Source of the DNA: an uncultured Eubacteriales bacterium
Lineage (GTDB): Bacteria > Bacillota > Clostridia > Peptostreptococcales > Anaerovoracaceae
Direction of reading: 5' to 3'
NCBI GenBank assembly: GCA_949285555.1
Contig: CASDYG010000002.1
Span: 124,001-188,000, forward strand
DNA: 64,000 nt
The translations under genes were made by a program, and so were the position numbers. This document shows positions 12,217-60,275 of this stretch, piece after piece. The stretch's first letter is position 1, and each line of letters opens with the position of its first letter. The notes beneath the pieces are model-generated. The model saw only the letters and a list, made by a program, of their open reading frames with translations. It ran no database searches and was not told the DNA's origin.

Positions 12217-13401
12217 TCATACAAAAATTTGTTCCATGCCAATGCTTTTGAGATCCTTTGCTCCACACATAAGCATAGTATCCTTAAGTTCTCTATAAAA
12301 TTTATCAACTAAGTTAAGTACTCCATTTTCCCCATGGTTATATACTGCATTCACAAATGGTCTGGCCACCAATACTCCATCTGCACCAAGAGCTAACGCC
12401 TTAAAAACATCTATACCATCTCTTATTCCGCCATCGACAAAAATTTTAACCTTATCCGAAGCATCTGCAGTATAAATACTTCCACTCCTTTTCACATTCA
12501 CCTTAAAAATACCATTCTCTTCACCAGGCACATTCACCTTGAATATATTAGTTGGATCCATGCCCATGCGAGCATGCTCATCACTGGAATTAGCTTCAGG
12601 TATTCTTTGTTCCGCCATATTAGACTTCCACATATCTAATTCATATGCTCTAACAGCCTTAACAATAGCTGGAAGAACATGTGCTGTTGGAGGACATTGA
12701 TCGAGTACCCTTCCTCCATGATTGCTTATCACTATTGCTCTGGCTCCAGCTTTTACTGCCTTTATAGCACCTGACGGCGTCATAATTCCTTTAACAATAA
12801 ATGGTATGTTAGAGTTAGCACTACTTATATGCTCTACAATTTTTCTAAGTTCCTCTACTGATTTTCTACCTGCTGGAGGTGTAAGACCTTGTAAAAAAGG
12901 AAGCCCCGCAGCATCTACGTCCATGGCAATGGCCTTTGCGCCACTTTCAAGAGCCATATCTATTTTCTCCATACATGTGGCATTATCCCATGGTTTTATA
13001 GTTGGAACACCAAATCCATCCATGCCTTTTAATGCTTCACACGCACCCTTTATAACATGTGGATCAGTACCATCACCAGTGAAAGCAATAATTCCAGCTT
13101 TCTTCGCTGCACTAAGCAAAATTTCATTGTAGGATTCATCGGTGTGCTTCTCACCATAGTGAAGCTTTACTGCTCCAACTGGTGCTGCAATAAGGGGTAG
13201 CTTAAGCCTGCTTCCAAAAAAATCAAAGCTGGTATCAGGTTCAAAATGTTCACCTATAGTATCCATATTGATTTTAATGTTTTTCCAAGCTCTATAGTTA
13301 TCTATAGCTCCTTCTCCTATACCTTTAGCCCCCGGCCCAGGTATCGTATTTTTACATGCACGCCCATCACAAATTTTACAATCGTAGCAAAAGCCTATCA
13401 T
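12217..13401 (-). CDS. FMN-dependent alpha-hydroxy-acid dehydrogenase/oxidase family protein
   Basis: A ~394-residue TIM-barrel flavoprotein of the glycolate oxidase/lactate oxidase/FMN-dependent dehydrogenase family, oxidising a 2-hydroxy acid to the 2-oxo acid. Family marks seen are the FMN-binding lysine in FIVKGIMTPSGA, the catalytic His/Arg in SNHGGRVLD, and the phosphate-binding FVDGGIRDGIDVFKALALGAD. The start at ATG 13401 is chosen for its GAGG ribosome site; an upstream ATG at 13446 lacks one. Odd feature: an N-terminal Cys cluster (C5, C8, C11, C16) that could bind a metal or Fe-S cluster and serve an anaerobic electron acceptor; this is inference. It sits 31 bp after a class V aminotransferase. 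The substrate is unknown. Confidence 0.85.
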   Translation of the reverse strand: MIGFCYDCKICDGRACKNTIPGPGAKGIGEGAIDNYRAWKNIKINMDTIGEHFEPDTSFDFFGSRLKLPLIAAPVGAVKLHYGEKHTDESYNEILLSAAKKAGIIAFTGDGTDPHVIKGACEALKGMDGFGVPTIKPWDNATCMEKIDMALESGAKAIAMDVDAAGLPFLQGLTPPAGRKSVEELRKIVEHISSANSNIPFIVKGIMTPSGAIKAVKAGARAIVISNHGGRVLDQCPPTAHVLPAIVKAVRAYELDMWKSNMAEQRIPEANSSDEHARMGMDPTNIFKVNVPGEENGIFKVNVKRSGSIYTADASDKVKIFVDGGIRDGIDVFKALALGADGVLVARPFVNAVYNHGENGVLNLVDKFYRELKDTMLMCGAKDLKSIGMEQIFV

Positions 13402-13432
13402 AATTACCTCAATAATGTATATTTGGCAGCTA

Positions 13433-14566
13433 TTATAAGTTTTCAAGAAATTCCATTTTTAAATTTCCGGAAATATTCATGCCTAGCTCAGACAGGGTAC
13501 TTTGTAGTGCATCTAGAGTAAGTGCCAAATCATCCTTTCTGGCATTTTCTCCCATATGGCCAATCCTGATCACCCTATCTTCTAGTGGTCCCAAGCTACC
13601 AGATATAATTATATCATAGTCATGCATCATTTTTTCAAGAACATCTTTAGGTTTTATGTTTGTCGGCAGCTCTATTGCTGTAGCAGTATTGGAAAAGCCT
13701 GACTTAAGATATAATGCTATACCACATTTTTTAAGCGCTGCTCTAACTGCTTCCCCCATTTTTTCATGACGTTTTAAAATCGCCTCATCCTGCTCTACCA
13801 TTTCAACGGCCTGCCTTAACCCCATAATGTCACTGGCAGGCATAGTATATGGAAATGCTTTTTTCTCAAAATAATCCCTGTACATCATCAGATTAAGATA
13901 AAACCCAGCAATTGGTGTCCTCCTACTTTCCATAGCGTGCCATGCATCATCACTTACCCACACCATGGTCAGACCTGGAGGAGCCGATAGTGCCTTTTGT
14001 GAGCCTCCACACAGTATATCGATTTTACCTTTGTCCATATCAATAGGTTCACCAAATATGCCTGCAACCGTATCCACTACTGAAAGAATTCCATATTCTT
14101 TCAGTAGAATGGATATTTTCTCTACAGGATTAATTAGTCCACTTGGCGTATCGCAGTGTACCATCGTAGCATACTTATAGTTTTTACTTTTATTTTCTTC
14201 CAAATGATTTCTAATTTCATCAAGGCTAAATGGCTCTCTATAGTCACTTTCAAAGATAGTAGGATTACCACCATACATTGTCACAAAGTCTGCAAAGCCT
14301 CTTCCAAATACACCATTGTCAAGCACAAGTACATTATCATCCTTTTCTGTAAGACAAATACATGCTGCTTCAAGACCCATTATCCCCTCGCCGTTTAAGA
14401 TAAGGCACTGATTTTTAGTATGAGCAAGTCTGGATAAAATATCACATGTCTCCTTATAAAAATCAACGAAGGCCGGATCCAAATCCGGATTAGTAAATGG
14501 CAATGCCCTTTTTTTCATCACCTCATCGTGGACCTGCGTAGGCCCAGCACACATCAACTTATACAT
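13433..14566 (-). CDS. Class V aminotransferase (alanine-glyoxylate/serine-pyruvate type)
   Basis: A ~377-residue PLP enzyme of the alanine-glyoxylate/serine-pyruvate aminotransferase group. The N-terminal MCAGPTQVHDEVM matches the GPT-x-V signature of this group, SVVDTVAGIFGEP carries the PLP-binding Asp, and the Schiff-base lysine lies in CGGSQKALSAPPGL (Lys191 from this start). ATG 14566 is preceded by AAGGAGAC; the frame extends to 14596 without a better site. It is followed by the FMN 2-hydroxyacid enzyme and preceded by an ECF transporter gene in the same orientation. The pairing suggests interconversion of a 2-hydroxy acid, its 2-oxo acid and an amino acid, such as glycolate-glyoxylate-glycine; that is inferred. 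Confidence 0.88.
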   Translation of the reverse strand: MYKLMCAGPTQVHDEVMKKRALPFTNPDLDPAFVDFYKETCDILSRLAHTKNQCLILNGEGIMGLEAACICLTEKDDNVLVLDNGVFGRGFADFVTMYGGNPTIFESDYREPFSLDEIRNHLEENKSKNYKYATMVHCDTPSGLINPVEKISILLKEYGILSVVDTVAGIFGEPIDMDKGKIDILCGGSQKALSAPPGLTMVWVSDDAWHAMESRRTPIAGFYLNLMMYRDYFEKKAFPYTMPASDIMGLRQAVEMVEQDEAILKRHEKMGEAVRAALKKCGIALYLKSGFSNTATAIELPTNIKPKDVLEKMMHDYDIIISGSLGPLEDRVIRIGHMGENARKDDLALTLDALQSTLSELGMNISGNLKMEFLENL

Positions 14567-14664
14567 TTTTCCTTGTCTCCTTGATTCACGCTTCAAATAT
14601 AGTATATATTAGGCTAGTCAAATATAAATATATTTTATGCTAGCCCTAAAGTCGTATAGTAAAT

Positions 14665-15228
14665 TTATTTATTTGAAAGATTGAAATTCATCTTTTTTAA
14701 TGCATATTTTAGAGGCTGTCCAATTAATATGGCAATAATGCCACCAACACCTACTTGAACAATATTTCCCATGATGGATTTCACAGGAGCAATCCAGTTT
14801 CCATAGATAATCGCCTCCCCAACATAGTAGCCACCTACCTTTATTAACATGGCCGCTAGAACCGCAAGTACCCAGTAAGCAACATGCATTTGACTACCCT
14901 TTTTGGCAATATATCCACAGGCAATGCCCATCATGGCAGAAACAATTACAGTAGTAGGAGCCCAAATTGCCCATCCACTTGTAATATCAAACAATCCCAT
15001 TCCTAAAGCACCAGCAATGGCAGATACCCTTGGTCCAAATACGAATCCGGCTACAAAAAGTGGTACGCATCCTAGATGAATGAGTCCTCCATTTCCATCA
15101 AAAATTCTTACATTTACCGATGCTGTTGCAATAAATGTAAGGGCAACAAAAACGGCTGCAATTGCCAGTTCCATAGTTGTCCATTTAGCATTAGCTTTAC
15201 AGTCTAGACTATTTGTTCTACTACTCAT
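14665..15228 (-). CDS. ECF transporter S component (vitamin uptake)
   Basis: A 187-residue protein with five or six membrane helices. After a charged N-terminus comes the S-component helix-1 signature (ELAIAAVFVALTFIATA, residues 20-36), then GLIHLGCVPLFVAGFVFGPR and an Ala/Gly-rich helix (AIAGALGMGLFDITSGWAIW). It resembles the ECF S components of Pfam PF07155, which bind vitamins such as riboflavin, pyridoxine or thiamine precursors. The ATPase and T units are not nearby, so it would use a shared energising module (group II). The two following genes need FMN and PLP, so a B2 or B6 vitamin is a reasonable guess only. AGGAGG precedes the ATG. Confidence 0.82.
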   Translation of the reverse strand: MSSRTNSLDCKANAKWTTMELAIAAVFVALTFIATASVNVRIFDGNGGLIHLGCVPLFVAGFVFGPRVSAIAGALGMGLFDITSGWAIWAPTTVIVSAMMGIACGYIAKKGSQMHVAYWVLAVLAAMLIKVGGYYVGEAIIYGNWIAPVKSIMGNIVQVGVGGIIAILIGQPLKYALKKMNFNLSNK

Positions 15229-15519: not shown

Positions 15520-15909
15520 ATGGGTATTACGAACCCGATAGGGCAAATTATTAAGTATCTTAGACATAAGCAAGAAATGACTCAGACTGAACTTGCCAGA
15601 AAAATTAATGTCACTAGATCTACCGTTAATGCCTGGGAATTAAATATCTCCTCTCCCAACATTGACAGCCTTATTACACTTGCAGAGGTATTTCACACTA
15701 CTACTGATTTTTTGCTGGGAATTGCACCAGAAGAGACTATCAGCTTGCGTAAAATGTCACCCAAAGCCAAACGCCTACTGTACATTATGGCAGATACTTT
15801 AAAGCAAAATGATGCTTATGGAACTCTGTACCATGATGATTCACTAGGTGAAAATGATAATATATCTGATGAACTGGTGGCAGAAAGCCTAGGCGAATAT
15901 AAATATTAA
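15520..15909 (+). CDS. XRE-family helix-turn-helix regulator
   Basis: A 129-residue DNA-binding protein. Residues 8-66 form a Cro/CI-type HTH (GQIIKYLRHKQEMTQTELAR, then INVTRSTVNAWE as recognition helix, then the SPNIDSLITLAEVFHTTTDFLLGI tail common to Firmicute XRE regulators). The remaining ~60 residues are acidic with no known domain. A strong AAAGGAGGAG ribosome site precedes the ATG. The upstream palindrome is a likely binding site, so autoregulation is expected. The downstream neighbour is a convergent non-coding RNA. Targets other than itself are not evident; the divergent ECF operon is a candidate. Confidence 0.9.
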   Translation: MGITNPIGQIIKYLRHKQEMTQTELARKINVTRSTVNAWELNISSPNIDSLITLAEVFHTTTDFLLGIAPEETISLRKMSPKAKRLLYIMADTLKQNDAYGTLYHDDSLGENDNISDELVAESLGEYKY

Positions 15910-15959: not shown

Positions 15960-16127
15960 AAAAAAGGGTAATCTGCAGATTACCCATATTAGTTTTCGTA
16001 GATTTTACACACGAATGCTCACTACACCTTACCGATAAACTATAACGGTAGCAGACCTTAAAGACATTAGTATTTCTGACCCGCTAATGTTCGGCGAGAT
16101 GCTGCAACCCCCCTAGCTCATTTCTAT
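15960..16127 (-). ncRNA. Candidate structured non-coding RNA (family unresolved)
   Basis: A ~168-nt minus-strand transcription unit without an open frame. It has a near-consensus promoter (16135-16163) and a strong intrinsic terminator (20-bp perfect palindrome GGGTAATCTGCAGATTACCC at 15966-15985 followed by six T on the minus strand). In between are several short hairpins: ACATTAG/CTAATGT (16064-16070 with 16084-16090), ACCG/CGGT (16031-16034 with 16046-16049) and TTCGT/ACGAA (15995-15999 with 16011-16015), and a conspicuous run of seven G near the 5' end. The region is less AT-rich than its flanks. This is a typical layout for a stand-alone RNA. I cannot name the family; 6S RNA, the raiA motif and SRP RNA are alternatives to test. 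Confidence 0.72.
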
Positions 16128-16134
16128 TATATTT

Positions 16135-16163
16135 AGTATAGCATATTATCCGCAGATTTTCAA
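16135..16163 (-). promoter_or_regulatory. Promoter of the candidate ncRNA
   Basis: On the minus strand, TTGAAA (16163-16158), a 17-bp spacer, and TATACT (16140-16135). No ribosome site or start codon with a usable frame follows, which supports an RNA gene. Confidence 0.75.
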
Positions 16164-16228
16164 TAATTTTAGAGTTTGTAACTAAAAACATGTATTACTA
16201 TCCACTAAAACTTGAATTCCTAATTTTC

Positions 16229-16269
16229 AAATGTCAAGTCTTTTTTATGAAAATTTTTTATTTTTATAA
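16229..16269 (+). repeat. Left copy of a 41-bp direct repeat bracketing the accessory island
   Basis: Begins AAATGTCAAGTCTTTTTT and matches 27420-27460 at all but three positions, in the same orientation. It lies directly beyond the stop codon of the AbiEii gene. It may be a recombination footprint or a shared mobile-element promoter segment (its minus strand holds TTGACA). Confidence 0.8.
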
Positions 16270-16270
16270 T

Positions 16271-17104
16271 TTACATAGATATTTCGACTAAAGCATTTAG
16301 ACTTTCAATTATTTCACTAAACTCAATCCCTTTCGCATATGGATTTTTCTTTTGATATCTTTTCCATCGTTCTTGAATCAAATAATTCTCATTAATGTGA
16401 GCAATAATGACTTTTGCTTTATCCTTTGAAATATCTGTCTTCCTATATCTAAATGTCATAGAAACAGCTATTTTAAGTTCTTTTATATTGATAACTTCTG
16501 ATTTATTTTTCAAAATGGCATAGATATCATAAAAATCTTTACTTCTACTATTATTTTCCGCTCTTGCCAGTACTGTTTGCAATTTTTCCGATAGTACGGA
16601 TTCTAGTGGATACATCTTTAACTCAATATGCTCCCCTAAAATTGTGCTGTATTTTTCTACCCTTGGGAAAGGATAAATTGGATCGCCTGTGGCAATATCA
16701 ATACTAAACGGTATTCTAATATTTGCTAAGTGCCCAATGATATGAAATTTCAGTCCGCCATATTCATCCTCTGCTCTAATTTCTTCAGCATTTCCGTTTA
16801 ATTCAAACCATATATCTGATTGTTTGTTATATTCAATGATTTCTAATAAAATTTTGATCATCTCTGTAGACTCTAATGGAAATCCCTTTACTAAAAAGTC
16901 AATGTCTTGAGTGGCTCTATTTTGTACACCTAAAGAATAAGTTAATAGCATACCACCCTTAAGCGTAAAATTTTCTCTATGTGCACTATTAGAAATTAGC
17001 TTCAAAAATTCATCAAAGAAAAATTTACTTAATACCAAATTATAATTTAAGCCGAGCTCCTTTGCTTTATTTCTTAGTTTCTGTGTTACGCTATCCTTAT
17101 TCAT
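16271..17104 (-). CDS. AbiEii/AbiGii-family nucleotidyltransferase toxin
   Basis: A ~277-residue protein of the nucleotidyltransferase AbiEii family, the toxin of type IV abortive-infection systems. The DNA polymerase beta-like core is visible: FTLKGGMLLTYSL (near residues 44-56) and the catalytic RATQDIDFLVKG (near 60-72). Known AbiEii proteins transfer nucleotides and stop growth after phage infection. The ATG at 17104 has an AGAGGTG site and overlaps the last codons of the antitoxin gene by 8 bases (ATGAATAA), the usual coupling of this pair; a TTG at 17110 is less likely. Length is normal and no break is seen, so the system looks intact. Confidence 0.9.
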   Translation of the reverse strand: MNKDSVTQKLRNKAKELGLNYNLVLSKFFFDEFLKLISNSAHRENFTLKGGMLLTYSLGVQNRATQDIDFLVKGFPLESTEMIKILLEIIEYNKQSDIWFELNGNAEEIRAEDEYGGLKFHIIGHLANIRIPFSIDIATGDPIYPFPRVEKYSTILGEHIELKMYPLESVLSEKLQTVLARAENNSRSKDFYDIYAILKNKSEVINIKELKIAVSMTFRYRKTDISKDKAKVIIAHINENYLIQERWKRYQKKNPYAKGIEFSEIIESLNALVEISM

Positions 17105-17693
17105 ATACAATCACCTCTAGGATCTCTTCAATTTGTTGTGCTATTCCAAATTCCTTAGCATACTCTCTCAGTTTCCATATATTCTTAGAATCTTTCTTGA
17201 TATATAGATTCCAAGCCTTAGAAAATATCTCTGTATCTTGATTTTTTCTATCTCTTACCAAATCACAAATGGTCCTTTCCATATCATAAGCATATACAGA
17301 ATTTCCCATATCCGTTTTAATTTCAACCTTCCCACGTTCATACCATTCTTTCTTTACTTGATGAACAATCACAGAGTCCTTAATACGCCATGCATTATAA
17401 CCTTGCTTTACGGTTACCTCATTAGTAAAAGGCAATCTATCTGTCAGTCTATGCAAATACAGTGCTGTTTGATAGGAATAAATGCAAGCCTTGTTTTGGA
17501 GTTGAAAAAAGAAAAGTTCATCATAATTATCAAAATTTGGATCAAAGTAGACCCCTCTTGCCACTCTTTCAAGTTCTCCCTTTTGCACCAAATTTGTAAG
17601 ATACCAAGAATCAATTTTATTGTCTGATACTTCCTTGGCCGTTATAACTCCATTATTTTGTTTTATGATTTCTCTGATTTTATTTTGATTCAC
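17097..17693 (-). CDS. AbiEi-family antitoxin/transcriptional repressor
   Basis: A ~198-residue protein of the AbiEi type: an N-terminal winged helix (NKIREIIKQNNGVITAKEV...WYLTNLVQKGELERVARGVY, residues 2-50) followed by the AbiEi C-terminal domain (ACIYSYQTALYLHRLTDR; VYAYDMERTICDLVRDR). In studied systems the wHTH binds inverted repeats in its promoter and the C-terminal domain counters the toxin. I start at GTG 17693, which has AGGA 10 bases upstream and gives the usual N-terminus; the frame extends to another GTG at 17738. It is the first gene of the two-gene AbiE operon. It borders phage debris, consistent with a defence cargo. Confidence 0.88.
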   Translation of the reverse strand: MNQNKIREIIKQNNGVITAKEVSDNKIDSWYLTNLVQKGELERVARGVYFDPNFDNYDELFFFQLQNKACIYSYQTALYLHRLTDRLPFTNEVTVKQGYNAWRIKDSVIVHQVKKEWYERGKVEIKTDMGNSVYAYDMERTICDLVRDRKNQDTEIFSKAWNLYIKKDSKNIWKLREYAKEFGIAQQIEEILEVIVYE

Positions 17694-17755
17694 TATTTCC
17701 ACTTCCTTTTGTGCTTTATTATAAACTAAATAACGCACAAAAGCAAGTTTTCTCT

Positions 17756-19320
17756 TTATATAAATAAAAGCCCTCTGCCATCATAAACGCTTTCTGTATT
17801 GTTATTTCCACAGTGTCTTGCTCTATCCAGTCCCATGATGGTTGCTATAGCTCCATCAATTTTTTCAGTAGACTTTTCTTTATCTGCTTTGATGTTTCCA
17901 GCAGAATCTGTTCTAAAAAATATATTATCCATCTAAGCACCGGATTTCCACCATGGCAATCTTTTGCTCCAGCTTTAGTTTCATTAGTTCCTTAGTAGGT
18001 GGCCTCATTTCCTTAATGGAACAACGATAAAACCCATTTCCTCTAAGTTTTGTACCATCTGAACAGCACCCAACGGTCAAATGCAATTTCTCTGATCTTA
18101 TATTTCTCACCAAGCTTTTCTATGAATTTTTCGATATAGCTATAGTGTACTGCTTTGCATTCAATAGTCTTTTTAGAACCCTGCTGTTCCCAAACATCAT
18201 AAAGCATATGGTCACGCTTAACCCTTATGACTAATGTTTCTTCCGGTATCCAAAGTAAGGCAGTACCTCATACTTATCATCCTCATCAGTCGGAGGAAAG
18301 ACCAAAACAAAAGCTGTAATATCCATTGTCGATGAAAGGGCAAGACCTCCATAACAGACTCTTCCTTAAAGGTCATCTTCATCCACCATAAAAGAACAAG
18401 CATACCATTTTTCCATCTGCATCCATCTGATAGCTTGTCTTATCCACTGGTTAAGTCTTAGCTGTCTAAATGAATTCTCCTCTCCTGAATTTTGCTTTGC
18501 TTATTCACAGGCTGCCTTTACATTATCAATCCCAACTGTTACTCCAAGAGATGGATCTGCTTTCTTCCATACTTTTGGATCTGCCCAATCGTCAGTTTCA
18601 TCTGCTCCATAAATTACAGGATAAAAAGTAGAATCTATTTTTTTCCTTCTAAAATATTTTTAGCCTTTTGATGGGTTTCATAGCAGATAGAATGTGTGTC
18701 TGTGCCTGTTGTTATAAGAAATATAAAGGCTAAGTTCTTGCATCACCTGAACCTTTAGTCATAACCTCAAAGAGTTATCTATTTGGCTGAGTATGAAATT
18801 CATCAAATACAACTCCATAAATATTAAACCAATGCTTGGAATATGCTTCTGCAGATAGAACTTGGTAAAAGCTATTTGTTGGCTAAAATACAATTCTCTT
18901 TTATGAAGCTAATATCTTAACTCTACGGCTAAGAACCGGATACATTCTTACCATATCTGCTGCAACATCAAATAAATTTGTTGCCTGCTGTCTATCCGCA
19001 TCGTAGCCATATGCTTCAGCTCTTTCTTCACCATCCCCACAATAAAGAAGTAAGGCAACAGTTACTGCAAGTTCACTCTTTCCCATCTTCTTTGGAATCT
19101 CACTATATGCAGTATTAAACTGCCTATATCCATTTGGTTTAATCACTCCAAATAAATCCCTTATAATCTGTTCCTGCCAAGGGAGTAACTTAAATGGCTT
19201 ACCTACCCGTGTACCTTTTGTGTGGCATAGGCATTCAATAAAATTTACAGCATATTCACCATATCTTTTACTACATTTATAATCTTTTGCTTTAAATTTT
19301 GTAGTCTTGTATTTTGCCAT
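17756..19320 (-). pseudogene. Phage terminase large subunit, decayed
   Basis: Remains of a full-length terminase large subunit (P-loop packaging ATPase with nuclease domain). The first ~140 residues are open from ATG 19320 (AGGAGGTGA before it): AKYKTTKFKAKDYKCSKRY, then the ATPase Walker A-like region EIPKKMGKSELAV and GYDADRQQATNLFDVAADMV. After about 18901 the homology continues through several frameshifts and stops: a Walker B-like GVVFDEFHTQPNR, LITTAGTD, RWGAVQ-equivalent sequence, and the C-terminal EKIDGAIATIMGLDRARHCG ending at TAA 17758. The gene is therefore a pseudogene, not several small genes. It is the main trace of a prophage that once occupied this site. Confidence 0.85.
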
Positions 19321-23235: not shown

Positions 23236-24281
23236 TTACTTCTTCGCATTTTCTTCCAATTCTAGCATATACTTGTCAAAATCGGACATAAACAATCTGT
23301 TCTGAATGACACGGTACTTTTCAAATTCAGTGTCAGCTTTCGCCTTGGCAATCTCTGCCGTGATCTTGCCCGCATCCTGAAGGGCCTCTCTGTCATCTGC
23401 CATCAGGAATAGATCCAGACGCTTTGACCAGTCCTCCATTGTCATCGGAATATGATGTTCAGCACGATCCTCTGCCAGATCCAGATAGGCCGAAACAATA
23501 CGCTCTAATGAACGCATTTCCTGCTCAGAAAGATAATTCTTTGCAACACTCACGTCACTTTTTACAATCTTGCCTTATGGTGCGGCTGCCCAAGTGGTCA
23601 GTCCCATGTGTGACTTATCTGCATCTGCTCGCTCATAAATCAGCTCTGCTGCCGTATGGTCGTGAACTGCATAATGCATCGTGTTCTGTATTTAGCAAAG
23701 AACAGCTTCGTTGTTTTTGCTGTGCGGTCGTAATCAAGAGCTGTGGTATAGATGTCCGCTATCTTCTGATAGAATCTACGCTCTGACACTCTAATTTCTC
23801 GAATCTGCTCAAGCAAACGGTCAAAGTCTTCTATTGTGAGCACAGACCCACCGTTTTTCAAGCGCTCATCATCCATAACCCATCCTTTGATGGTGTAGTT
23901 CTTTACAATGCCAGTAGCCCACTTACGAAACTGCACTGCTAGCTCATTATTGACCTTAATTCCAACTGCAATAATCATTTGAAGATTATAATGTTTCGTA
24001 TCACAGGTAACCTGTCGCGAACCTTCGGATTGAACTATCCGGAAATTCCGGATAGTTGAATCTTCCTCAAGCTCTGAGTCAGAATAAATCTTCTTAATAT
24101 GCTCATTGATTGTACGAACATCTACTCCATACAACGTGGCCATCATCTTCTGCGTCAGCCATATATTCTCATCCTCATAGCGCATCTCAATACTCTCCTG
24201 CTGATCTCCGACTGAGGCAACATAGGTCAGATATTCTGCTGCACTGGAACGGATGGTTATTTCATCTTTTTTCTTTTTCAA
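23236..24281 (-). pseudogene. RhuM-family protein, interrupted by frameshift and stop
   Basis: Two frames together make one RhuM-type protein (virulence-associated RhuM family, usually ~330-345 residues). The first 213 residues from ATG 24281 carry the family marks IWLTQKMMATLYGVDVRTINEHI and KHYNLQMIIAVGIKVNN and run to YTTALDYDRTAKTTKLFFAK; then a 1-base deletion near 23690 shifts the frame. The continuation (HTAAELIYERADADKSHMGL) is also cut by an in-frame TAA near 23575 (AAP-stop-GKI). The final 105 residues (MSVAKNYLSEQEMRSLERIV...) are open to 23236. RhuM proteins are common mobile-element cargo of unknown biochemical function. The gene is inactive unless the breaks are sequencing errors. 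Confidence 0.85.
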
Positions 24282-26088: not shown

Positions 26089-27255
26089 CTATATTAAAAC
26101 TTCTGTTCCGTCTCTTAATATATCAATATATTCTTTATAACTGTATACTTTGTTCCTTCCCTGTTTCTTTACTAAATGAAGGATTCCAAGTTTTCCAAAT
26201 CTATTTACGGCTGAAGAAACAGTATTGTATGTTATAGATAAATCTTCTGCAGTTTTTCCAATTTCTATAATAGGATGTGCTTCCAAGTAATGAAATACCC
26301 TCATCATTGTCTCCAATGTTCTTTTTGTATATTTCTCATCTTCTATTTTTTTTATATTTTTATCTCTTAATAAAATTAACTCATTTGCAGTTTCTATAGC
26401 TGATTCTCCACTAGCGTAGATTCCTTCTAGAAAAAATTTGATCCATTGTTCATAATCTCCTGTTTCTCTAATTGCTGACATCCTATCATAATATTCAACA
26501 CGATGCTCCTTTAAATAAAATGATAAGTATAAAGATGGAGTTTTTATAACTTTTTTCTCCAATAAGTATAAAACAATCAGTAATCTTCCAATACGTCCGT
26601 TTCCATCTAAAAATGGATGTATTGATTCAAACTGATAGTGAATAAGTGCAATTCTGATCAAATCATCTAATTCATCCTCTGCATTCATATATTTTTCTAA
26701 ATCAGATAAAGATTCTTTCATGGATAAAACATCCGGGGGTATATACCTTGCCGTTTTTATCGTAGAACCTGCTCCACCTATCCAGTTTTGGCTTTGTCTA
26801 AACTCTCCGGGATTTTTCTCTTTTCCCCTTACTCCAGATAGTAATACTTTATGAGTTTCCAAAAGCAACCTATTGCATAAAGGTAATGTTTCCAATCTTT
26901 TTATTGCATATTTGGTAGCTTTGATATAGTTAACAACATCATCCACATCCGCATTGATATTTTCATCGATATTAGGATTAAAAATATCTTCTAATGTTGC
27001 CTGCGTACCTTCAATTTGTGATGAAAGAAGAGCCTCTTTTTTGACATACATAGAAATAAACAAATCAACATTTGGAATGTATGTTGCTCTATCATCAAGT
27101 ATTGCTAATACTTTATGAGCCTTTATTAATTTCTCTGTAATATCACTATCAACTTCTATTGGAGGATTCGGAGGTAATTTTGAAGGATAAAAAGAAAAAT
27201 ATGTCATCTCGCCTGACAATTGTTTTTTTAAAGTTCCTGCTCTTTCCTTTTTCAT
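26089..27255 (-). CDS. Fic-family protein with N-terminal inhibitory motif and C-terminal winged helix
   Basis: A 388-residue class II Fic protein. These enzymes usually transfer AMP to a target protein. The active-site loop HPFLDGNGRIGR (residues 213-224, His213 catalytic) is intact. The inhibitory helix S-x-x-x-E-G is at SSQIEG (78-83), so activity would be self-restrained. The last ~70 residues (KTAEDLSITYNTVSSAVNRF...) form a winged helix-turn-helix. An AAGGAG site precedes the ATG. The promoter upstream is covered by a perfect 14-bp inverted repeat, consistent with autoregulation through the C-terminal domain; this is inferred. No separate antitoxin gene is adjacent. It has its own promoter and terminator and appears intact. 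Confidence 0.92.
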   Translation of the reverse strand: MKKERAGTLKKQLSGEMTYFSFYPSKLPPNPPIEVDSDITEKLIKAHKVLAILDDRATYIPNVDLFISMYVKKEALLSSQIEGTQATLEDIFNPNIDENINADVDDVVNYIKATKYAIKRLETLPLCNRLLLETHKVLLSGVRGKEKNPGEFRQSQNWIGGAGSTIKTARYIPPDVLSMKESLSDLEKYMNAEDELDDLIRIALIHYQFESIHPFLDGNGRIGRLLIVLYLLEKKVIKTPSLYLSFYLKEHRVEYYDRMSAIRETGDYEQWIKFFLEGIYASGESAIETANELILLRDKNIKKIEDEKYTKRTLETMMRVFHYLEAHPIIEIGKTAEDLSITYNTVSSAVNRFGKLGILHLVKKQGRNKVYSYKEYIDILRDGTEVLI

Positions 27256-27332: not shown

Positions 27333-27419
27333 AACAGCCTTCTCCTATCCATATTTCAAAAGTAGATATCTACATAAATAAACTCTCTCTTTCTTTCGCC
27401 TAATTACAGCATATTTTGT

Positions 27420-27460
27420 AAATGTCAAGTCTTTTTTGTGAAATTTTTTTATTTTTTTAA
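27420..27460 (+). repeat. Right copy of the 41-bp direct repeat
   Basis: Same orientation as 16229-16269 with three mismatches. Together the copies bracket 11.2 kb that includes AbiE, the terminase and portal remnants, the foreign block, rhuM and fic. Confidence 0.8.
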
Positions 27461-58434: not shown

Positions 58435-59138
58435 TCTCCTTCATCATAGTTCATTTTTTTATTTAAACCTTTCTGTGTTAGTTTTTCTTTATCTTCTTCA
58501 TACCAATTAAGGATTGTTACATAATGGTCTTTATAGTATTTCCCAGAGCTTTTAATATATCTTGATAGCTTTTCAATCATTGTATCTGTATGACTTTGCA
58601 GCTTATCCTTTAACTTATGGTATTCTTCTTAAGTTAATCGAACATTTTGATATTTTCCGTAAAAAGAAACTGGGGCTACTTGGTTTTCTTTTTCTCTTCT
58701 CCCCTTATCTATACTAACCTTATCTAATCTACCCTTACCTATACTGGGTTGACCACTTGACAACCTTTGATTAACCAGATGACAACCAACTTTTTCTTCT
58801 GAAATATATGCTCCATTTTCCGTCTGATAAAGCTGTTGTTTCTGCTCTATATACATTGTTGGCTTATATCTGTCTTTTCTAATAAAGTTATTTATCTTCC
58901 AATGAGTAATGACGATAATTCCCTGATCAAAGACTATCACAAAGCCTTTGGCAATAAGTATTTGTTGGTCATCTTCATTAGCTCCGATAATTTTGATGAT
59001 TTTCTTAGGATTATTTACAAAACCATCATCATCTGCCCTCATTGATAAATGAAAATATAGGCATTGACTACTTAGTGGCATATCCAACAATAAGTCGCTA
59101 TCTACTATCTTTAGTGAAAACATTCTTTTATCTGTCAT
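58435..59138 (-). pseudogene. Phage/element replication initiation protein, nonsense-interrupted
   Basis: From ATG 59138 the protein begins like a phage replisome-organiser N-terminal domain (MFSLKIVDSDLLLDMPLSSQ; LYFHLSMRADDDGFVNNPKK; ITHWKINNFIRKDRYKPT), then a low-complexity linker to FYGKYQNVRLT. A TAA follows at 58631-58629, but the same frame continues without a break (EEYHKLKDKLQSHTDTMIEK; YYKDHYVTILNWYEEDKEKL) to GESL and TAG 58437-58435. The continuation is the typical C-terminal domain of these proteins, so one base change (probably GAA to TAA) has split the gene. The N-terminal 169 residues could still be made. Confidence 0.8.
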
Positions 59139-59227
59139 GCTCTCCTACCTTTCTTCAAATAAAAAAAGACGATAGTTTTTTACTTCTACCGCCTTGCATA
59201 TTGCTATGATTTTTTCATAATTATATA

Positions 59228-60232
59228 TTAAATTTTTAAATCTTTATTATTTAACATCTTACTAAACATATCATGGTACATATCTTTAGAAGATTCTTCT
59301 ATCTTGGTAATACTTGATATTTTATTTCCTGCATCCTTTGACGATGCTCCGCAAAGATAAAAGGCTTCATTTTCTGTTCCATAGTCTATGGCAATATATC
59401 TATCATGATATTTTTTACCAGCTATCTTAAGCTTCAAGTCTATATTAGGATAGTCTTTTCTAAAATCATCTAAGATATTTTTTGTAAGCATATCCTTGTT
59501 CTTGACATTATCACTAAAGACTATGATTTGAGTCTTATCTCTTGCAGCTCTTAAAAGTTCCAATGTTTTAAGTCCTACATAGTTATCTATTACATAAATG
59601 CTTTTCTTTGCTGATTTATATATTTTTGTATAGGCAACATCAGCTTCTATCTTATCTCCATTCATCAAGAGGAAATGTTTATATGTTTCCGGGTCTATAA
59701 AATTATCCATTACCTTTTTAAAATCTTCTTTTGTAGCCATTTGAGATTTTATTTCTGCAATATCTTTTGTGTTTTGGTTGGTTTGAATGGCAATTGGTAC
59801 TAATTCTTTTGAACTGATAAAATCTTGATTTTCAACGATGAAGTCTTTCATCTGCTTAAACATTCGTATTAAAGCCTTGCTCTGTTTAACTGCAAGTTCT
59901 CCCCTCAATACAGTCATGAGCATATATATTCCCTGTTCTGTAAAGGCATATGGATTATACTTTATATTGCTTCCTCTACCTGTTCCTCTCTTCAAGGTCA
60001 CATTTTGTGATCTTGAAAGTTCATATACTTCTTCATCGGTTAATTGGAACATAAAATCATCATCAAATTTTTCATTATTTCTTTTTACCTGTTGATTAAA
60101 AGCTCTTGTTTCATACCCATATATTTCAGCAAGTTCAAAATCAAGCATAACCTTTTGATTTCGTATATAGTAAATCTTACTTTTAATTGTAGTTTCATCT
60201 ATAACTACAATTTCCTTATTTTGCTCTGCCAC
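59228..60232 (-). CDS. ORF6N-domain protein with PLD-like C-terminal region
   Basis: A ~334-residue protein of phage and mobile-element type. Residues ~8-95 form an ORF6N DNA-binding domain (KIYYIRNQKVMLDFELAEIY, RAFNQQVKRNNEKF, YAFTEQGIYMLMTVL). A middle helical part follows (MKDFIVENQDFISSKELVPI). The last ~150 residues resemble a degenerate phospholipase-D-like module: SIYVIDNYVGLKTLELL, then KYHDRYIAIDYG and FYLCGASSKDAG. GTG 60232 is favoured because AGGAGG is 8 bases upstream; the frame begins 3 codons earlier. ORF6N proteins often act as antirepressors or regulators; the role here is unknown. Confidence 0.82.
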   Translation of the reverse strand: MAEQNKEIVVIDETTIKSKIYYIRNQKVMLDFELAEIYGYETRAFNQQVKRNNEKFDDDFMFQLTDEEVYELSRSQNVTLKRGTGRGSNIKYNPYAFTEQGIYMLMTVLRGELAVKQSKALIRMFKQMKDFIVENQDFISSKELVPIAIQTNQNTKDIAEIKSQMATKEDFKKVMDNFIDPETYKHFLLMNGDKIEADVAYTKIYKSAKKSIYVIDNYVGLKTLELLRAARDKTQIIVFSDNVKNKDMLTKNILDDFRKDYPNIDLKLKIAGKKYHDRYIAIDYGTENEAFYLCGASSKDAGNKISSITKIEESSKDMYHDMFSKMLNNKDLKI

Positions 60233-60258
60233 AAAATTCACCTCCTATATATTTTGGG

Positions 60259-60275
60259 GGCTACAACTTGTAGCC
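60259..60275. promoter_or_regulatory. 17-bp palindrome before the ORF6N gene
   Basis: GGCTACAA and TTGTAGCC around a single central base, 16 bases upstream of the AGGAGG site. No T tract follows on the minus strand, so an operator or 5' hairpin is more likely than a terminator. Confidence 0.45.

What the first reader, a model, noticed from the sequence alone, without database searches (positions are those of the whole stretch)
15960..16163. Stand-alone structured RNA gene with its own promoter and terminator
A near-consensus sigma-A promoter (TTGAAA-17-TATACT) drives ~168 nt of minus-strand, non-coding sequence ending in a 20-bp perfect palindrome plus six T. Several local hairpins and blocks less AT-rich than the flanks suggest a conserved fold. 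It is convergent with an XRE regulator and next to an accessory island. I cannot assign a family: it could be a known Clostridia RNA (6S, raiA motif, SRP) or a new one.
Basis: partly seen in the sequence, partly recalled or inferred. Interest (0 to 1): 0.75.

Follow-up and report, generated by a model that had tools for sequence, protein, structure and literature searches.

The report
Orphan RNA, likely anti-repressor brake
In a Clostridia bacterium, a short stretch of DNA with no clear protein-coding frame carries a good promoter match at one end and a clean terminator at the other, and is likely a small RNA gene that would damp production of a phage-type anti-repressor protein; no relative of it was found in the genomes searched, and neither its transcription nor its target has been tested.

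Summary
The DNA features are real: minus-strand TTGAAA-17-TATACT with extended -10 (16163-16135), a predicted ~169-nt transcript (16128-15960), a perfect 20-nt palindrome and six T. It is the only strong promoter-terminator pair of this kind in the window. The 'conserved fold' is not supported: without the terminator the body folds no better than shuffles (z -0.64). Rfam finds nothing, and the genome carries its own 6S and raiA elsewhere. No convincing homologue turned up by blastn or a single-sequence covariance model. The RNA converges on a phage-type XRE gene and ends short of a decayed AbiE-bearing prophage. An accessibility-aware target scan over 246 gene starts put a phage-type anti-repressor (ORF6N, PHROG 'anti-repressor') first: 12 uninterrupted pairs, 9 nt upstream of its Shine-Dalgarno; 1 of 56 shuffled RNAs did as well over those starts. 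Scans without accessibility favoured ruvA instead, so this is a lead. Best reading: a lineage-specific base-pairing RNA working like phage P22 Sar or P1 c4, not a member of either. A modest, testable case.

The parts
16135..16163 (-). predicted sigma-A-type promoter: TTGAAA, 17 nt, TATACT, with TG of an extended -10
   Evidence: sequence match only
15960..16128 (-). predicted small RNA of about 169 nt (start inferred 7 nt after the -10)
   Evidence: transcription not tested
16101..16112 (-). predicted pairing segment GGGGGUUGCAGC
15986..15996 (-). A/U-rich linker before the terminator, mostly unpaired in the computed ensemble
15960..15985 (-). intrinsic terminator: perfect 20-nt palindrome plus TTTTTT
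15520..15909 (+). XRE/phage-repressor-type HTH protein, 129 aa, convergent with the RNA
   Evidence: Pfam HTH_3; PHROG phage transcriptional regulator/repressor; best non-self relative 48% identity over 71%
60256..60267 (-). predicted target site GUUGUAGCCCCC in the leader of the anti-repressor gene, 9 nt upstream of AGGAGG
59228..60241 (-). ORF6N-domain protein, PHROG 'anti-repressor' (listed start 60241; GTG at 60232 fits the Shine-Dalgarno better)

Best explanation
A 169-nt minus-strand unit with a promoter match and a perfect terminator is likely an orphan small RNA that would repress translation of a phage-type anti-repressor by base pairing. Shown directly: the promoter match, palindrome and T run; the lack of an ORF inside; the phage-type XRE gene convergent with it; the 12-bp uninterrupted complementarity between its G-rich 5' segment (16112-16101) and the leader of the ORF6N anti-repressor gene (60267-60256), 9 nt upstream of AGGAGG. 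Inferred: sigma-A transcribes the unit; the RNA ends at the palindrome; the 5' segment opens a leader hairpin and occupies the edge of the ribosome-binding region, lowering anti-repressor synthesis, so that a phage-type repressor (possibly the neighbouring XRE) stays active. The sign of regulation and the XRE link are guesses.
For: Promoter-terminator pair unique in the window, 0 in 10 Markov sequences. GC rise over the transcript. Target scans with accessibility: the anti-repressor is first of 48 window starts (-16.2 kcal/mol; 0 of 120 shuffled RNAs as low for that gene, 2 of 120 over the best of 48), first again with longer leaders and the full transcript (0 of 220; 3 of 220, or 5 of 220 by z-score), and first of 246 starts (52 in the window, 194 in 12 stretches of 20 kb from the same genome), 3.3 kcal/mol ahead of the next; 1 of 56 shuffles reached it over all 246. 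The gene was annotated only after it came first: ORF6N, PHROG anti-repressor E 1.7e-19. XRE matches phage repressor families. Precedent: P22 Sar and P1/P7 c4 RNAs repress anti-repressor synthesis by pairing near the ribosome-binding site (PMC12197685, passages seen).
Against: No homologue, so no covariation or conserved seed. Scans without accessibility put ruvA first: z -3.64; the 10 of 40 control minima printed ran -1.90 to -3.46; anti-repressor z -1.44; 2 of 150 shuffles as extreme. A co-folding scan gave no significant target (ruvA first, 36 of 60 controls as extreme; anti-repressor z -1.0). So six scans by differing methods, chosen one after another, disagree; family-wise 1-2% is nominal. 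A G-run meeting a C-run is a cheap match. The target lies 44 kb away, and RNA and anti-repressor are not shown to belong to one phage. About one sixth of the genome outside the window was scanned for targets. Transcription is untested.
Confidence: 0.33

Rival explanations
1. It is an expressed small RNA of this lineage, but its targets are other mRNAs or a protein; the anti-repressor match is chance.
For: Same promoter, terminator and no-ORF evidence; target scans disagree (against 97, 101, 109); most of the genome's starts were not scanned.
Against: The anti-repressor was the best of 246 starts with 1 of 56 shuffles reaching it, and its annotation fits a phage-repressor neighbourhood.
Confidence: 0.34
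2. It is a fossil or young spurious transcription unit: a remnant at the edge of a decayed mobile region, with a promoter and a palindrome but no function.
For: Body no more stable than shuffles; no homologue; neighbouring prophage is in pieces; XRE is nearly a singleton; other GC-rich non-coding blocks of this window are decayed genes.
Against: A perfect 20-nt palindrome with six T and a 10/12 extended -10 promoter, the right distance apart, would be expected to erode if useless.
Confidence: 0.2
3. It is not a separate gene: the palindrome is the shared terminator of XRE (plus strand) and AbiE (minus strand), and the rest is untranslated tail.
For: The palindrome is symmetric and passes the scan on both strands; AbiEi-AbiEii point towards it.
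Against: The six T lie on the minus-strand side only; a -35/-10 pair sits between AbiEii and the body; an inverted repeat 16207-16242 could end the AbiE message earlier.
Confidence: 0.08
4. It is the first member of a new structured RNA family.
For: GC-rich body in AT-rich flanks; rod-like fold possible.
Against: z -0.64 without terminator; covariance model R1 finds no relative in 345 family and 299 phylum genomes beyond weak hits.
Confidence: 0.05

Closest known systems
P22 Sar RNA and P1/P7 c4 RNA (phage antisense RNAs that repress the anti-repressor gene ant)
   Same: Short RNA near a phage-type repressor gene, predicted to pair close to the ribosome-binding site of an anti-repressor message (precedent read in passages).
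   Different: Longer (about 169 nt against 68/69 and 77 nt in the table of PMC12197685); predicted target 44 kb away; pairing upstream of, not over, the Shine-Dalgarno; ORF6N-type protein; pairing unproven.
Trans-encoded base-pairing sRNAs with intrinsic terminators, including prophage-encoded ones such as the Pas sRNAs of E. coli
   Same: Own promoter, intrinsic terminator, A/U-rich linker, narrow distribution, mobile-element setting (Pas: abstract and outline of PMC13192938 seen).
   Different: No expression data, no homologue; Hfq or another chaperone not looked for.
6S RNA (RF00013) and raiA/ModT RNA (RF03072)
   Same: Size range, stand-alone genes in Clostridia.
   Different: No score here; each has its own copy elsewhere in this genome.

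Membership tests
6S RNA (RF00013) | Covariance-model score at or above gathering (46.4 bits) | tested here: not met
   No match at 15960-16163 even at E up to 10; the genome's 6S is at G000:C1:59023-59194, 57.4 bits
raiA/ModT RNA (RF03072) | Covariance-model score at or above gathering (101.3 bits) | tested here: not met
   No match here; raiA is at G000:C3:250063-250225, 138.1 bits
SRP RNA | Match to an Rfam SRP model | tested here: not met
   None; I did not locate the genome's own SRP RNA
Any Rfam family | Gathering-score match | tested here: not met
   0 in the 64-kb window; best weak match sraA, 21.9 bits against a cut-off of 56
Sar/c4-type anti-repressor antisense RNA | Complementarity near the ribosome-binding site of an anti-repressor message | tested here: inconclusive
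   12 uninterrupted pairs 9 nt upstream of AGGAGG; first, not
Sar/c4-type anti-repressor antisense RNA | Encoded next to the anti-repressor gene (recalled from general knowledge) | tested here: not met
   RNA at 16.0 kb, ORF6N gene at 60.2 kb of the window
Sar/c4-type anti-repressor antisense RNA | Represses anti-repressor translation | not testable with these tools
   needs a reporter assay
Base-pairing sRNA with intrinsic terminator | Own promoter and Rho-independent terminator, no ORF | tested here: met
Base-pairing sRNA with intrinsic terminator | Expressed as a discrete transcript | not testable with these tools
   no RNA data
tracrRNA | Anti-repeat complementary to a CRISPR repeat | tested here: inconclusive
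   blastn of the body against its own genome at E up to 10 gave only itself and one 15-nt match in a coding frame; Cas9 and CRISPR arrays were not searched genome-wide

The most novel reading that the evidence does not exclude
A Clostridia counterpart of the phage P22 Sar / P1 c4 switch: an orphan RNA beside a phage-type XRE repressor that acts in trans, 44 kb away, on an ORF6N anti-repressor message, so that repressor, anti-repressor and brake RNA form a dispersed lysogeny switch kept by a host whose prophage has decayed.
Probability: 0.17. Interest if true: 0.6.

Novelty: new member of a known kind. Interest (0 to 1): 0.34.

Why it matters
Small RNAs of the Anaerovoracaceae are hardly described in the papers searched (one search gave 2 papers, neither about them by title). 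If the pairing is real, it extends antisense control of phage anti-repressors to Clostridia and to an RNA placed far from its target, and shows how such an RNA can outlive its prophage. If not, it is an example of a clean promoter-terminator unit without a conserved fold, and of why an orphan intergenic RNA should not be called a structured family.

Tried and rejected
Known families: Rfam at gathering and permissive thresholds; 6S and raiA found elsewhere in the genome. tRNA/tmRNA: none in the window.

Homologues by blastn, at E up to 0.01 except (0.001): relatives 1 of 41 (itself only), family 4 of 349, order 4 of 393, class 2 of 291. In the larger searches at most two candidates a genome were scored, and the genome sets overlap. 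Besides the window's own genome the hits are stretches of 19-25 nt: G003 lies in a 608-aa ORF that I read as relA; G011 lies in a 324-aa ORF; G182 overlaps ORFs of 497 and 288 aa on the other strand; G529 (25 nt, no listed ORF of 60 aa over it) was not read further. Plasmids and phages: 1 and 7 records, each match covering 7-10% of the query. Viral 17- to 19-mers: 1, 0, 1, 0, 0 records, the two found showing no similarity beyond the word. The 18-mer in genome contigs gave 24 records; in none of the 24 did the surroundings align better than the best of 50 flank shuffles.

Homologues by covariance model R1 (built from the one sequence given twice): family 4 of 345 at E up to 0.1: itself; G308 and G093 (the same 75-nt match that skips the middle 89 positions; in G308 it lies inside a 182-aa ORF); G073 (inside a 343-aa ORF that I read as a CDF transporter). 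Phylum 1 of 299 (itself). 19 held loci: 0. A second place in its own genome (G000:C6, 19.1 bits, E 0.078) is too weak to call a paralogue.

Link to XRE: relatives in 5 of 147 other sampled family genomes at E up to 1e-12, 33-41% identical; no R1 match near them. Link to AbiE: the viral relative L027 has different DNA after AbiEii. Pseudogene idea: short frames were listed, but their Pfam scan did not run. ruvA as target: first when unfolding is not charged, not significant when it is.

Full report
Setting. The window is part of a 1.45-Mb, 90%-complete genome in 16 contigs. A same-genus genome, G003, has a contig of the same length (215,161 bases) as the S5-A14a record JRNA01000016.1 and the same 18-mer; NCBI places that organism in the Anaerovoracaceae, Clostridia. 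The finding lies between an XRE gene (15520-15909, plus) and AbiEii/AbiEi (16271-17738, minus).

Observation. The minus strand carries TTGAAA-17-TATACT with TG before the -10, then about 169 nt without an internal ORF, then a perfect 20-nt palindrome and six T. Loose promoter matches are no more frequent than chance (16 against 13.6), but the strict combination occurs once in the window and not in 10 Markov sequences, each scanned on one strand. Four of the six other strict promoter matches stand 21-45 nt upstream of a same-strand ORF, so the motif is informative in this genome; this one has no gene behind it.

Fold. The transcript gives z -1.48 (18 of 200 shuffles as good), and -0.64 without the terminator (49 of 200). 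In 100-nt windows on the minus strand only those holding the palindrome fall below z -2. Alternative folds lie 1.3-1.5 kcal/mol apart. The GC rise is real (0.45 core against 0.20-0.24 flanks), but other GC-rich non-coding blocks in the window are decayed genes, so this does not decide.

Family. Rfam gives no hit at gathering in the whole window and only scores far below cut-off in a permissive scan of the site. The genome's 6S and raiA are elsewhere. Blastn in relatives, family, order and class samples, and a covariance model in family and phylum samples, found no convincing relative; the weak hits are told in Tried and rejected. Large searches used reduced candidate numbers or stricter filters, and strains of the same species could not be reached.

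Surroundings. Window 16271-19268 aligns at 75% over 3.0 kb with a viral contig, L027, across terminase, AbiEi and AbiEii, and stops exactly after AbiEii: a prophage remnant. Next to it, 16221-16269 repeats at 27412-27460 (88%); its core word occurs four times in the genome with up to one mismatch. The RNA lies outside this bracket. The genes to the left, ECF riboflavin-type transporter and class-V aminotransferase, stay together in 7 of the 11 relative loci examined, whereas no XRE relative lies in any of those 11. XRE has no close relative among 39 proteins found (next best 48% identity over 71%) and matches phage repressor families. XRE and RNA are therefore accessory and lineage-specific.

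Mechanism. I scanned gene starts for pairing. Without charging for unfolding, ruvA came first; a co-folding scan gave nothing significant. Charging both partners for unfolding, one site came first each time: RNA nt 16-27 (GGGGGUUGCAGC, 16112-16101) with GUUGUAGCCCCC at 60267-60256, all 12 positions paired, three of them G-U. It was first of 48 starts (2 of 120 shuffles as low over the 48), first with longer leaders and the full transcript (3 of 220, or 5 of 220 by z-score), and first of 246 starts from the window and 240 kb of the same genome (1 of 56). The gene was identified afterwards: ORF6N, PHROG anti-repressor. The site lies 9 nt upstream of AGGAGG and in one arm of a leader hairpin. Phages P22 and P1/P7 restrain their anti-repressors with small antisense RNAs that act near the ribosome-binding site (PMC12197685, passages). 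I therefore think this RNA most likely works like Sar or c4, with a phage-type repressor gene as its neighbour. It is not filed as a member: it is not encoded beside its target, and pairing and repression are unproven.

Weighing. Transcription is likely, the target is a lead. The nominal family-wise rate is 1-2%, but six scans by differing methods were run in sequence and disagree, so I give 0.33 to the anti-repressor mechanism and 0.34 to a small RNA with other targets. That the RNA is a conserved structured family is unlikely.

Noticed in passing
window 16271-19268; L027 814-3840: Decayed prophage piece with a terminase fragment and an intact-length AbiEi/AbiEii pair, 75% identical over 3.0 kb to a viral contig in which AbiE lies between terminase and a gene that I read by eye as the portal.
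   Followed up: partly
window 16221-16269 and 27412-27460: 49-nt repeat (88%) on both sides of the accessory island; the core word occurs four times in the genome, once at the end of an 80-aa ORF that looks by eye like a transposase head. Possibly IS-end remnants.
   Followed up: partly
window 23236-24281: RhuM-family gene in two separate frames; described only.
   Followed up: no
window 26089-27255: Fic protein close to the PADLOC SoFic model (E 2.2e-114).
   Followed up: no
window 58629-60241: Phage-type pair next to complex-I-like genes: DnaD-like helicase loader and ORF6N anti-repressor.
   Followed up: partly
L058 1501-1609 (G000:C6:38717-38825): Intergenic stretch before a gene I read as gap, with its own terminator and a weak R1 match (19.1 bits); perhaps another small RNA.
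   Followed up: partly
window 16148-16158 and 15970-15980: The promoter spacer and the terminator arm share an ATCTGCNGAT-like motif (10 of 11 complementary); unexplained.
   Followed up: no
window 12217-15228: ECF riboflavin-type transporter and class-V aminotransferase are neighbours in 7 of 11 relative loci, with an FMN-dependent dehydrogenase next in the window; a conserved module of unknown substrate.
   Followed up: no
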